From Actinomycetota bacterium (lineage in GTDB: Bacteria; Actinomycetota; Thermoleophilia; Solirubrobacterales; 70-9): DNA of 64,000 bases. Of the stretch, positions 17,868 to 21,388 are shown piece after piece. The stretch covers positions 1 through 64,000 of the forward strand of contig JAFDWB010000077.1 of NCBI GenBank assembly GCA_018268675.1, in the 5' to 3' direction. The notes beneath the pieces are model-generated. The model saw only the letters and a program-made list of their open reading frames with translations, ran no database searches and was not told the origin of the DNA. The stretch's first letter is position 1. Every line of letters begins with the position of its first letter. The position numbers and the translations under genes were made by a program.

Positions 17868-18770
17868 ATGAGCGATGGGAGCGAAAGGGTCACGGCCCTC
17901 GGCAGACGGTCGTGCCTCTCGGTCCCCGGGTCTTCCTCGAGGAAGCTCGAGAAGGCCGCGGCACTGGCCGCCGACGAGTTCGTGCTCGACCTCGAGGACG
18001 CGGTCGCCGCGGCGGAGAAGGCCGACGCGCGGCGGGGCGTCGTCGATTTCCTCGCCGGCGGCGGGCTGAACGGCCGCGGGGTGGCGGTCCGGGTCAACGC
18101 GCTCGGGTCGCCCTGGTTCGAGGAGGACGTGAGGGCGCTCGGGGCGCTGGCGCGGCGCCCGTTCTCGCTGGTCGTGCCGAAGGTGGAGGGGACGGCGGAG
18201 ATCGACGTCGTCGCCGGGCTGCTGGGGGAGGCGGAAGCGGACGACCGGGGCGAGCCGATCCGCGTCCAGGCATTGGTCGAGACCGCGGCCGGGGTCGCGC
18301 GGGCAGGCGCGATCGCGACCGCCTCCGAGCGCCTCGACGCGCTGATCATCGGTTATGCCGACCTTGCCGCCTCGCTCGGGCGCTCGCCGGCCCTCGCCCG
18401 CGACCCCGACAGCTGGCTGGCGGTGCAGGACGCGGTCCTGATCGCGGCGCGCGCGGCCGGCTGCCAGGCGATCGACGGGCCCTGGCTCGGGGTCGAGGTC
18501 GACGAGGGGTTCACGCGGGCGGCCCGGCGCGCCGCCGAGCTCGGCTTCGACGGCAAGTGGGCGATCCATCCCGCGCAGATCGACGCCCTGAACGCGCTCT
18601 TCACCCCCGACGAGGCCGAAGTCGACCGGGCCGAACGGGTCCTCGCCGCGCTCGACGAGGCGGCGCGGGCGGGCGCCGGCGCGGCCGCCCTCGACGGCGA
18701 GATGATCGACGAGGCACTTGCGGTCGGCGCCCGGCGGATCCTCGCCAAGGCACAGGGGTCGCGCGCGTGA
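17868..18770 (+). CDS. CitE-like CoA-ester lyase (malyl/beta-methylmalyl-CoA lyase candidate)
   Basis: HpcH/HpaI-CitE family enzyme, 300 residues, which reversibly splits beta-hydroxyacyl-CoA thioesters in a Mg-dependent TIM barrel. Motifs: CLSVPGSSSRKLEKA at the N-terminus, LDLEDAV (metal region), VRVNALGSPWFEED, the Glu in ALVETAAGV and the Asp in GYADLAASLG. It overlaps the MaoC gene by four bases and that gene overlaps a Mct-like CoA-transferase. This order points to malyl-CoA or beta-methylmalyl-CoA chemistry with glyoxylate rather than to citrate lyase, since no CitD/CitF is present. The specificity is inferred from context. Confidence 0.82.
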   Translation: MSDGSERVTALGRRSCLSVPGSSSRKLEKAAALAADEFVLDLEDAVAAAEKADARRGVVDFLAGGGLNGRGVAVRVNALGSPWFEEDVRALGALARRPFSLVVPKVEGTAEIDVVAGLLGEAEADDRGEPIRVQALVETAAGVARAGAIATASERLDALIIGYADLAASLGRSPALARDPDSWLAVQDAVLIAARAAGCQAIDGPWLGVEVDEGFTRAARRAAELGFDGKWAIHPAQIDALNALFTPDEAEVDRAERVLAALDEAARAGAGAAALDGEMIDEALAVGARRILAKAQGSRA

Positions 18771-19786
18771 GCGGGGCGCCGGCCATCGGGCGGGCCGCCA
18801 CCGAAGGCCCGTACTTCGAGGACCTCGAGGTCGGCCAGGTCGGCCCGGCGGCGCCGGCGCTGACCCTGACCGAGGGCCACGCCGCCCTCCACCAGGCGAT
18901 CCTCGGCGACCGCCTGCGCCTGGCGCTCGACGCCACGCTCGCCGCGCGGGTCTGCGGTGAGGGTGCGGCAATCGCGCACCCGGGCCTGGTCTGGGACGTC
19001 GCGATCGGCCAGTCGACGCTGCTCACCAGGCGGGTGATCGGCAACCTCTTCTACCGCGGGCTGGCGTTGCGCCGGGCGCCGCGGATCGGCGACACGCTCC
19101 GCACCGTCACCGAGGTCGTCGCCCTGCGCCAGAACCGCGCCAAGCCCGGGCGGGCGGCCACCGGCGTCGCCGCGCTCCACATCCGCACCGTCGACCAGGA
19201 AGAGCGCCCGGTCCTCGACTTCTGGCGCGCCGCGATGCTGCCGCTGCGCGATCCCGCCGGGGAGACCGGCCACGCCGACGACCTGGCCGCGGTCGGCGGC
19301 GAGCTCGAGGGGGCGACGCTCGCGGCGCCCTTCGCCGGCTGGGACCTCGCCGCCTACCGCGAGCTCGTCCCCGGCCCGCACTTCGCCGACCTCCAGGCGC
19401 CGCGCACCTGGGCGGTCGAGGGTGGCGACGTGGTCAGCTCGGCGCCGGAGCTCGCCCGGCTCTCGCTCAACGTCGCCGGCACCCACCACGACGCCGCCGC
19501 GGGCGGCCACGGGCAGCGCCTCGTCTACGGCGGCCACACGATCGGCATCGCCGCCGCCCAGCTCACCCGCGCGCTGCCGAGCCTCGTCTCGATCGTCGCC
19601 TGGCACTCGTGCGACCACCTCGGCCCGGTCTTCGAGGGCGACACCCTGCGCAGCGAGGTCGAGCTCGAGCGGGCCGAGCCGCTGCCGGGCGGCGGCCTCG
19701 TCCACCTCCGCTCGCGGGTCCGCGCCGACCGCGACGCCGCCCCCGCCGAGGTGCTCGACTGGCGCCTGATCGGACTGCTGGCGTGA
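18767..19786 (+). CDS. MaoC-type hydratase (mesaconyl-CoA hydratase candidate)
   Basis: Two-hotdog MaoC-like enoyl-CoA hydratase, 339 residues, close to the length of mesaconyl-C1-CoA hydratases (Mch/MeaC). The first hotdog contains GLVWDVAIGQST and LFYRGLALRRAPRIGDTL; the second contains LNVAGTHHDAAAG, YGGHTIGIAAAQL and WHSCDHLGPVFEGDTL. Such an enzyme adds water to mesaconyl-CoA to give beta-methylmalyl-CoA. The GTG start overlaps the lyase stop (GTGA) and its own stop overlaps the next GTG. Family assignment is secure; the exact substrate is inferred from neighbours. Confidence 0.82.
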   Translation: MSGAPAIGRAATEGPYFEDLEVGQVGPAAPALTLTEGHAALHQAILGDRLRLALDATLAARVCGEGAAIAHPGLVWDVAIGQSTLLTRRVIGNLFYRGLALRRAPRIGDTLRTVTEVVALRQNRAKPGRAATGVAALHIRTVDQEERPVLDFWRAAMLPLRDPAGETGHADDLAAVGGELEGATLAAPFAGWDLAAYRELVPGPHFADLQAPRTWAVEGGDVVSSAPELARLSLNVAGTHHDAAAGGHGQRLVYGGHTIGIAAAQLTRALPSLVSIVAWHSCDHLGPVFEGDTLRSEVELERAEPLPGGGLVHLRSRVRADRDAAPAEVLDWRLIGLLA

Positions 19787-21006
19787 GCGGCGGGGTGCTG
19801 GCCGGGCTGCGCGTGGTCGAGGGATCGGCCTTCGTCGCGGCGCCGCTCGGCGGGATGACGCTGGCCCAGCTCGGTGCCGACGTGATCCGCTTCGACCAGA
19901 TCGGCGGCGGCCTCGACCAGCACCGCTGGCCGCTCGCCGCCGACGGCCAGAGCCTCTTCTGGGCGGGCCTCAACAAGGGCAAGCGCTCGATCCAGATCGA
20001 CCTCCACGGCGAGGAGGGGCGCGAGCTGGCGCGCGACCTGATCGCCGCGAGCGGCGCCGAGGCGGGCCTCTTCCTGACCAACTTCCCGGCCCGCGGCTGG
20101 CTCTCCTACGAGCGCCTGCGCGAGGCCCGCGAGGACCTGATCATGGTCGCCCTGACCGGCAACCCGGACGGCTCGAGCGAGGTCGACTACACGGTCAACC
20201 CGGCGACCGGCTTCCCCTGGGCGACCGGGCCGCGCAACCTCGCCGAGCCGCTCAACTCGGTGCTGCCGGCCTGGGACGTGGCGATGGGGACGCTCGCCGC
20301 GGTCGGCCTGCTCGCCGCCGAGCGCCGGCGTACCCGCACCGGCGAGGGCCAGCTGGTCCGCCTCTCGCTGTCGGACGTCGCCTTCGCGATGGTCGGCAAC
20401 CTCGGCCGGATCGCCGAGGCGACGCTCGGCGGCCGCGACCAGCCGAAGGACGGCAACTACCTCTACGGCGCCTTCGGCCACGACTTCGAGACGCGCGAGG
20501 GCCGCCGGGTGATGGTCGTCGCGCTGACCGCGCGCCAGTGGCAGGCGCTCCAGGACGCCACCGGGATCGCCGAGGCCTGCCGCGGGGTCGAGGCGGCGAC
20601 CGGCCACGACCTCTCCACCGAGACCGGCCGCTTCGAGGCGCGCGACCTGATCGCGGCGCTCCTGCGCCCCTGGTTCGCGGCCCGCGACCTGGCCGAGATC
20701 CGCACCGTCTTCGAGGGCACCGGCGTCTCCTGGGGCCCCTACCAGACATTCCGCCAGCTGGTCGAGGAGGACCCCCGCGTCTCCACCGCCAACCCGATGT
20801 TCGAGCCGGTCGAGCACCCCGGCGTCGGCACCTACCTGATGCCCGCCTCGCCGCTCGACCTCTCCCTCGACGGGCGCCTCCCGGTCCGCCGCGCGCCGCG
20901 CCTGGGCGAGCACACCGACGAGGTCCTCGCCGACGTGCTCGGCCTCGGGGAGACCGAGATCGGTCGGCTGCACGACCGTGGCCTGGTCGCCGGCTCTTCG
21001 CAGTGA
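19783..21006 (+). CDS. mct: class III CoA-transferase, mesaconyl-CoA C1-C4 transferase-like
   Basis: CaiB/BaiF family enzyme of 407 residues, the length typical of Mct (2-methylfumaryl-CoA isomerase), which moves CoA from C1 to C4 of mesaconate. Residues about 7-40 (VVEGSAFVAAPLGGMTLAQLGADVIRFD, given here as its parts VAAPLGGMTL and GADVIRFD) and FWAGLNKGKRSI, FLTNFPARGWLSY and DYTVNPATGFPWATGP match what I recall of that subgroup. The class III catalytic Asp position is occupied by Asn or Asp in different relatives and needs alignment. It is the third gene of the triad, coupled by a GTGA overlap. Confidence 0.8.
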   Translation: MSGGVLAGLRVVEGSAFVAAPLGGMTLAQLGADVIRFDQIGGGLDQHRWPLAADGQSLFWAGLNKGKRSIQIDLHGEEGRELARDLIAASGAEAGLFLTNFPARGWLSYERLREAREDLIMVALTGNPDGSSEVDYTVNPATGFPWATGPRNLAEPLNSVLPAWDVAMGTLAAVGLLAAERRRTRTGEGQLVRLSLSDVAFAMVGNLGRIAEATLGGRDQPKDGNYLYGAFGHDFETREGRRVMVVALTARQWQALQDATGIAEACRGVEAATGHDLSTETGRFEARDLIAALLRPWFAARDLAEIRTVFEGTGVSWGPYQTFRQLVEEDPRVSTANPMFEPVEHPGVGTYLMPASPLDLSLDGRLPVRRAPRLGEHTDEVLADVLGLGETEIGRLHDRGLVAGSSQ

Positions 21007-21013
21007 CGGTGCC

Positions 21014-21388
21014 ATGCACCGGGTCGTCGACGCGATGAACGTGATCGGGTCGCGCCCGGACGGTTGGTGGCGCGATCGCGACGGGGCAATCGAGCGCCTG
21101 GTGGGCCGGCTGGAGCGCTGGGCCCTGCGGAGCGGGGAGAGGGTGACGGTGATGCTCGAGCGCGAGCCGCGCCAGGCCCTCCGGGCGGAGGGCGTCGAGG
21201 TCGCCTGGGCGCGCGCCGGTGGTGCCGACGCCGCCGACCGCGAGATCCTCGCCCGGCTCGGCGAGTGGCTGGCCGACGAGAAGGTGGTCGTGGTCACCTC
21301 CGACCGGGACCTGGCGAGGAAGGCCCGCGCCGCCGGCGCCGAGATCGCGCCCAGCCGCCCCTTTCGCGCCGCGCTCGACTCCCTCTGA
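21014..21388 (+). CDS. YacP-like NYN domain protein
   Basis: PIN-like NYN ribonuclease fold, 124 residues. The opening RVVDAMNVIGSRPDGWW carries the first catalytic Asp and the N of the family; DAADREILARL and VVVTSDRDLARKARAAGAEI carry the later acidic residues. Homologues are thought to process RNA and are close to YacP/Rae1, which in Bacillus cleaves mRNA on the ribosome. It starts seven bases after mct and may be cotranscribed with it by accident of position. Confidence 0.8.
   Translation: MHRVVDAMNVIGSRPDGWWRDRDGAIERLVGRLERWALRSGERVTVMLEREPRQALRAEGVEVAWARAGGADAADREILARLGEWLADEKVVVVTSDRDLARKARAAGAEIAPSRPFRAALDSL

What the first reader, a model, noticed from the sequence alone, without database searches (positions are those of the whole stretch)
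17868..21006. Overlapping mcl-mch-mct-like triad: part of the 3-hydroxypropionate bi-cycle
Seen: CitE-like lyase (300 aa), MaoC double-hotdog hydratase (339 aa) and class III CoA-transferase (407 aa) are joined by four-base overlaps; the transferase resembles mesaconyl-CoA C1-C4 transferase in length and motifs. Known: in Chloroflexus aurantiacus mch, mcl and mct are neighbours and convert propionyl-CoA-derived methylmalyl-CoA chemistry with glyoxylate into citramalyl-CoA, then acetyl-CoA and pyruvate. Inference: this actinobacterium may co-assimilate glyoxylate with propionyl-CoA. A fourth gene (meh, mesaconyl-C4-CoA hydratase) is not in the window.
Basis: partly seen in the sequence, partly recalled or inferred. 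Interest (0 to 1): 0.6.

Follow-up and report, generated by a model that had tools for sequence, protein, structure and literature searches.

The report
Mesaconyl-CoA-to-pyruvate three-gene operon
A soil actinobacterium carries three overlapping genes that most likely move coenzyme A from one end of a five-carbon acid to the other, add water and split the product into pyruvate and acetyl-CoA; together with its separate acetate-assimilation genes this would give a natural route from acetyl-CoA plus CO2 to pyruvate that we otherwise found only as a design on paper.

Summary
The three ORFs and their 4-base overlaps are real. The transferase (19783-21006) is a close relative of Chloroflexus mesaconyl-CoA C1-C4 transferase (Mct): about 63% identity, with catalytic Asp165, Arg47, Tyr136 and the 'cork' Leu43 kept. 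The other two genes are not orthologues of Mcl and Mch. The lyase forms its own clade. The hydratase belongs to the Rv0216 family, although it keeps nearly all mesaconyl-binding residues of the known hydratase. The same genome encodes an ethylmalonyl-CoA (EMC) set elsewhere, including an Mcl 63.5% identical to Chloroflexi Mcl, and lacks detectable Chloroflexi-type Meh, isocitrate lyase and malate synthase. Near mct, the Rv0216-type hydratase (51 loci) and Meh (13 loci) never occur together. In 26 genomes of the order, the hydratase occurs in exactly the 8 that have Mct. Best reading: mesaconyl-C1-CoA (from EMC) goes to mesaconyl-C4-CoA, then citramalyl-CoA, then acetyl-CoA plus pyruvate, with the Rv0216-type enzyme in Meh's role. 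Function is inferred; no enzyme was assayed. New variant of a known kind.

The parts
17868..18770 (+). CitE/HpcH-HpaI lyase (P0001, 300 aa); proposed (S)-citramalyl-CoA lyase
   Evidence: PF03328 140 bits; best NCBIfam model RipC/Ccl 186 bits, below its cut-off of 375; its own clade apart from Mcl
18767..18770 (+). 4-base overlap GTGA, lyase stop / hydratase start
18767..19786 (+). Rv0216-type double-hotdog hydratase (P0002, 339 aa); proposed mesaconyl-C4-CoA hydratase
   Evidence: 2bi0 (Rv0216) 329 bits, MeaC/Mch 92 bits; AlphaFold model pLDDT 94, top hits 2bi0, 8hgn, 4e3e
19469..19486 (+). stretch from Asn235 to His240 of the hydratase (MeaC catalytic Asn226 and His231)
   Evidence: 53 of 53 family members keep both; invariant in A1
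19783..19786 (+). 4-base overlap GTGA, hydratase stop / transferase start
19783..21006 (+). [quoted passage not shown]
   Evidence: TIGR04253 579 bits, cut-off 725; 7xkg/8apq 569/554 bits, next CoA-transferase 96 bits; signature residues
20275..20277 (+). codon of the catalytic Asp165 of the transferase
   Evidence: alignment to 8apq; bases GAC read

Best explanation
The three genes form a catabolic/anaplerotic module that takes mesaconyl-C1-CoA to acetyl-CoA plus pyruvate. Mct moves CoA within the molecule from C1 to C4 of mesaconate; the Rv0216-type hydratase adds water to mesaconyl-C4-CoA, giving citramalyl-CoA; the CitE-like lyase splits that into acetyl-CoA and pyruvate. The mesaconyl-C1-CoA most likely comes from the ethylmalonyl-CoA pathway encoded elsewhere in the genome (Ccr, Ecm, Mcd). 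The sum would be acetyl-CoA + CO2 to pyruvate without forming glyoxylate. Shown here: gene structure, family placement, conserved active sites, the EMC gene set, linkage and co-occurrence. Inferred: each substrate, the C4 (not C1) specificity of the hydratase, the citramalyl-CoA specificity of the lyase, the source of mesaconyl-CoA and the direction of flux.
For: (1) Mct identity: far closer to 7xkg/8apq than to any other class III CoA-transferase; Leu43, Arg47, Asn100, Phe101, Arg104, Ser132, Glu133, Tyr136 and Asp165 kept (sites from PMC9813914 and PMC9196870). (2) Mct's product needs a C4 hydratase. Chloroflexi-type Meh is not found in this genome or in the 7 other Mct-positive genomes of the order, while the same query finds it in four genomes reached through other loci. 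Beside mct the Rv0216-type hydratase (51 loci) and Meh (13 loci) are mutually exclusive (P(0) about 4e-6 if independent), and five Meh loci have no Mch beside mct, so Meh's slot is the one filled. (3) In 26 genomes the Rv0216-type hydratase occurs in exactly the 8 with Mct, even on different contigs in G104. (4) All hydratases keep six mesaconyl/malate-binding residues. (5) The genome encodes Ccr, Ecm, Mcd, EMC MaoC and Mcl at 79-84% to a same-family EMC cluster, so the triad is not needed for beta-methylmalyl-CoA chemistry, and mesaconyl-C1-CoA should be made. (6) Parallel clusters: Paraburkholderia D15 has a methylsuccinyl-CoA dehydrogenase relative (8ciw, 686 bits) beside an Mct-like gene, with Meh and a CitE-like lyase close by.
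Against: No enzyme of this clade is known to me to have been assayed. By sequence the hydratase is nearer to Mch (a C1 hydratase; 32%) than to Meh, with which it shares no significant similarity. The lyase scores about half the RipC/Ccl cut-off and also resembles malyl-CoA lyases; it is absent from the flanks of many mct-hydratase pairs and weak in G085 and G104. EMC genes are not linked to the triad, and most EMC-positive genomes of the order lack Mct, so the coupling is by logic, not linkage. Co-occurrence counts are not corrected for shared ancestry. P0003 is below the TIGR04253 cut-off.
Confidence: 0.58

Rival explanations
1. [quoted passage not shown] Gene-to-step assignment as in the best explanation, but another carbon source.
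For: All five steps have a candidate gene in the genome; Mcl is 63.5% identical to Chloroflexi Mcl; no isocitrate lyase or malate synthase found to deal with glyoxylate. PMC9802188 proposes assimilation of organic substrates for Mct-bearing Actinobacteriota.
Against: In EMC organisms these two enzymes normally run towards glyoxylate; the triad is not linked to them.
Confidence: 0.17
2. One reading: P0001 is Mcl (beta-methylmalyl-CoA lyase) and P0002 is Mch (mesaconyl-C1-CoA hydratase), next to Mct.
For: P0002 shares fold, length and nearly all mesaconyl-binding residues with Mch; P0001 matches 5ugr malyl-CoA lyase at 198 bits.
Against: A closer Mcl and an EMC hydratase lie elsewhere in the genome; P0001 is outside the Mcl clade; no C4 hydratase would then be known to use Mct's product; the hydratase alternates with Meh beside mct.
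Confidence: 0.12
3. Breakdown of an external or catabolic C5/C6 branched acid (methylsuccinate, mesaconate, a branched keto acid, alicyclic ring products) whose CoA ester enters as a C1 thioester.
For: Relatives lie beside methylsuccinyl-CoA dehydrogenase, ABC or TRAP transporters and 2-oxoacid dehydrogenase E1/E2 genes; the genome's second mct sits in a caprolactamase-like/acyl-CoA dehydrogenase cluster.
Against: No transporter, CoA ligase or activating transferase of that kind was recognised directly beside the window triad.
Confidence: 0.18
4. The triad runs in reverse: pyruvate + acetyl-CoA to mesaconyl-C1-CoA, then glyoxylate + propionyl-CoA, as in the proposed citramalate cycle.
For: Mct is described as reversible and EMC Mcl is present; a citramalate cycle is discussed in PMC8307300.
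Against: It would generate glyoxylate although no malate synthase was found.
Confidence: 0.05

Closest known systems
Mct-Meh-Mcl segment of the 3-hydroxypropionate bi-cycle (Chloroflexus, Roseiflexus)
   Same: Mct about 63% identical with the same active site; the same net conversion proposed
   Different: Hydratase is Rv0216-type instead of Meh; lyase is outside the Mcl clade; the genome has an EMC gene set; gene order lyase-hydratase-mct instead of mct-mcl-mch
Itaconate/methylsuccinate degradation cluster ict-ich-ccl (Pseudomonas, Cupriavidus; PMC12290011)
   Same: Ends in mesaconyl-C4-CoA or itaconyl-CoA to citramalyl-CoA to acetyl-CoA + pyruvate, with an (S)-citramalyl-CoA lyase
   Different: There CoA is loaded from succinyl-CoA directly at C4; here an intramolecular transferase takes a C1 ester; hydratase of another family (PaIch structures rank far below Rv0216 and MeaC)
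Reductive citramalyl/ethylmalonyl-CoA module designed in silico (PMC10521678)
   Same: EMC to mesaconyl-C1-CoA, then citramalyl-CoA, then acetyl-CoA + pyruvate: the conversions inferred here
   Different: A computer design from parts of several organisms; here the candidate genes lie in one natural genome
Rv0216 (2bi0), M. tuberculosis, double hotdog of unknown function
   Same: 53% identity in the structural alignment; same active-site residues
   Different: Its genomic setting was not examined here; substrate unknown

Membership tests
Mct (2-methylfumaryl-CoA isomerase, TIGR04253) | catalytic Asp165 with Arg47 and Tyr136 | tested here: met
Mct (2-methylfumaryl-CoA isomerase, TIGR04253) | Leu/Ile43 narrowing the mouth, the mark of intramolecular transfer | tested here: met
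   criterion from PMC9813914
Mct (2-methylfumaryl-CoA isomerase, TIGR04253) | score over the curated equivalog cut-off (725 bits) | tested here: not met
   579 bits; none of 120 genomes of the class passes. Filed as 'Mct-like, works like Mct', not as a formal TIGR04253 member
Mct (2-methylfumaryl-CoA isomerase, TIGR04253) | groups with Chloroflexi Mct, apart from other class III transferases | tested here: met
   (100* branch, FastTree, four outgroup rows)
Mct (2-methylfumaryl-CoA isomerase, TIGR04253) | C1-C4 transfer activity | not testable with these tools
   needs an assay
Mch/MeaC mesaconyl-C1-CoA hydratase | membership in the Mch clade or high identity (known ones share about 60%, PMC10164722) | tested here: not met
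   32% to Mch, nearest is Rv0216
Mch/MeaC mesaconyl-C1-CoA hydratase | Asn226/His231 and mesaconyl-binding residues | tested here: met
   6 of 6 invariant, Ser79 kept as T/S, but Phe71 changed to Ile in 51 of 53
Meh mesaconyl-C4-CoA hydratase | sequence similarity to Chloroflexi Meh | tested here: not met
   no significant match; proposed to work like it, not to be a member
Mcl (malyl/methylmalyl/citramalyl-CoA lyase) | groups with Chloroflexi/EMC Mcl | tested here: not met
   P0001 clade separate; a close Mcl homologue is at C83
RipC/Ccl (S)-citramalyl-CoA lyase | score over the NF038242 cut-off (375 bits) | tested here: not met
   186 bits, best of its NCBIfam hits; proposed to work like it
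[quoted passage not shown]
   no query sequence or model was at hand
Ethylmalonyl-CoA pathway (genome context) | Ccr, Ecm, Mcd, hydratase, Mcl all encoded | tested here: met
   Ecm and Mcd named by place in the cluster and family, not by their own curated models

The most novel reading that the evidence does not exclude
Some soil actinobacteria (and perhaps rhizobia) run a natural 'ethylmalonyl-CoA/citramalyl-CoA' cycle that makes pyruvate from acetyl-CoA and CO2 without glyoxylate, using a previously unassigned mesaconyl-C4-CoA hydratase family to which M. tuberculosis Rv0216 also belongs.
Probability: 0.35. Interest if true: 0.8.

Novelty: new variant of a known kind. Interest (0 to 1): 0.55.

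Why it matters
Mct (TIGR04253) has been used as the marker of the 3-hydroxypropionate bi-cycle, also in Actinobacteriota where the cycle then looks incomplete (PMC9802188). The evidence here gives that orphan enzyme a partner set, a different hydratase and a plausible supply pathway, and warns against the marker. If the route runs, it is a natural version of a designed acetyl-CoA to pyruvate module (PMC10521678) that avoids glyoxylate, in genomes without detectable isocitrate lyase and mostly without malate synthase. It also suggests a substrate class for Rv0216, a protein of unknown function whose structure paper calls it essential for survival during infection (title of 2bi0).

Tried and rejected
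Chloroflexi-type Meh in the own genome: not found, with a positive control later. Triad as Mcl-Mch-Mct orthologues: rejected for the lyase and hydratase. Glyoxylate cycle as the acetate route: isocitrate lyase over the cut-off in 0 of 26 genomes, malate synthase in 6 of 26 and not in this one. A wider operon: beyond mct, hydratase and in part the lyase, neighbours are not widely conserved. Sigma-70 and terminator scans gave nothing. Contamination as the reason for the EMC/triad combination: tetranucleotide profiles of the contigs correlate at 0.97-0.99, so no sign of it, though this cannot exclude a close relative. Mct co-occurrence with Ccr is uninformative because nearly all genomes have Ccr. 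A first reading of the Mct active sites was off by one residue and was redone.

Full report
Observation. The three genes exist as described: 17868-18770, 18767-19786 and 19783-21006 on the + strand, with two 4-base GTGA overlaps. Codon-position G+C is typical of coding sequence. A same-family genome (G005) and G035 carry the same trio in the same order, as do several public MAGs.

Transferase. P0003 matches the solved Mct structures 7xkg and 8apq at 569 and 554 bits, against 96 bits for the next class III CoA-transferase. Every residue named for catalysis or for the 'cork' in PMC9813914 and PMC9196870 was read from an alignment: Leu43, Arg47, Asn100, Phe101, Arg104, Ser132, Glu133, Tyr136 and Asp165 are kept, while Ile74, Arg75 and Arg314 differ (Leu, His, Gly), positions that also vary among relatives. 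In a tree of 96 sequences the window protein lies in a large, mostly actinobacterial clade near the one that holds Chloroflexi Mct, far from ordinary transferases. It does not reach the TIGR04253 cut-off (579 of 725 bits). In 120 genomes of the class the scores fall into two groups, above 490 or below 135 bits, so the family boundary is clear.

Hydratase. P0002 is closest to Rv0216 of M. tuberculosis (329 bits) and only distantly related to Mch/MeaC (92 bits); an AlphaFold model (pLDDT 94) ranks 2bi0, 8hgn and 4e3e first. Aligned to MeaC, whose pocket is described in PMC10164722, all 53 family members keep Asn85, Arg142, Asn226, His231, Tyr248 and Gly249, and Ser79 as Ser or Thr; Phe71 is Ile in 51 of 53. 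I infer a mesaconyl-like dicarboxyl-CoA substrate, with a changed pocket wall.

Lyase. P0001 scores best with the citramalyl-CoA lyase model RipC/Ccl (186 bits, below the cut-off). In a tree it falls in its own clade with the mct-linked lyases of other genomes; Chloroflexi Mcl and the Mcl of the EMC clusters form another. The tree has long branches for RipC and CLYBL, so it separates P0001 from Mcl better than it assigns a function.

Genome context. The genome (96.65% complete) encodes Ccr on C35 (505 bits, cut-off 379), Ecm running off the end of C35 onto C51 (83% and 80%), the EMC MaoC (81%) and Mcd (84%) on C51, and Mcl on C83 (79% to the same-family cluster, 63.5% to Chloroflexi Mcl). The cluster is thus probably one locus broken by contig ends. 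Isocitrate lyase over the cut-off was found in none of 26 genomes of the order, malate synthase in 6, not this one.

Why the hydratase is taken for the C4 enzyme. Mct yields mesaconyl-C4-CoA, which needs a C4 hydratase. Chloroflexi-type Meh is not detected in the 8 Mct-positive genomes of the order, while the same query finds it in four genomes reached through other loci. Near mct in 89 loci, 51 have the Rv0216-type enzyme, 13 have Meh, none has both (about 4e-6 under independence). Five of the Meh loci lack Mch nearby. In 26 genomes the Rv0216-type enzyme occurs in exactly the 8 that have Mct, and in G104 on another contig (Fisher p 6e-7). These numbers ignore shared ancestry.

Parallels. On several proteobacterial plasmids, Mct-like genes lie next to an acyl-CoA dehydrogenase gene or with one gene or so between; the one in Paraburkholderia D15 matches (2S)-methylsuccinyl-CoA dehydrogenase 8ciw at 686 bits, with Meh and a CitE-like lyase in the cluster. 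PMC12290011 describes the related itaconate/methylsuccinate clusters ending in citramalyl-CoA cleavage.

Conclusion. The best-supported reading is mesaconyl-C1-CoA to mesaconyl-C4-CoA to citramalyl-CoA to acetyl-CoA plus pyruvate. Fed by EMC this equals the 'reductive citramalyl/ethylmalonyl-CoA pathway' proposed as a design in PMC10521678 (acetyl-CoA + HCO3- + 2 NADPH + UQ to pyruvate). I found no paper in the library that reports it in nature; the library holds only open-licence papers, so this is weak evidence of novelty.

Noticed in passing
G000:C8:25326-26506 (L010:7265-8524) and C8:14052-14753: A second Mct-like gene (76% to P0003) and a CitE-like gene that looks frameshifted, in a cluster with caprolactamase/acetophenone-carboxylase-like subunits, pimeloyl-CoA dehydrogenase-like and luciferase-like genes.
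   Followed up: partly
L028, L030, L045, L055, L063, L074: 2-oxoacid dehydrogenase E1 (and E2 in L028) genes lie near mct in Solirubrobacterales and alphaproteobacteria.
   Followed up: partly
G000:C35 end, C51, C83 start: The EMC gene cluster appears to be split over three contigs, Ecm being cut between C35 and C51.
   Followed up: yes
L036, L042: MAGs titled Klebsiella pneumoniae and Bifidobacterium breve carry Mct genes that group with deltaproteobacterial and actinobacterial ones; the titles are probably wrong.
   Followed up: no
26 genomes of the window's order: Ccr is over the cut-off in 23 of 26 genomes while isocitrate lyase is over its cut-off in none: the order seems to rely on the EMC pathway.
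   Followed up: partly
window 21014-21388: A YacP-like NYN-domain gene appears to start within about 10 bases of the mct stop; it may be co-transcribed, with no evident link.
   Followed up: no
P0002 / 2bi0: Rv0216 of M. tuberculosis has the same residues as this hydratase at the MeaC mesaconyl-binding positions, so it may act on a similar CoA ester.
   Followed up: partly
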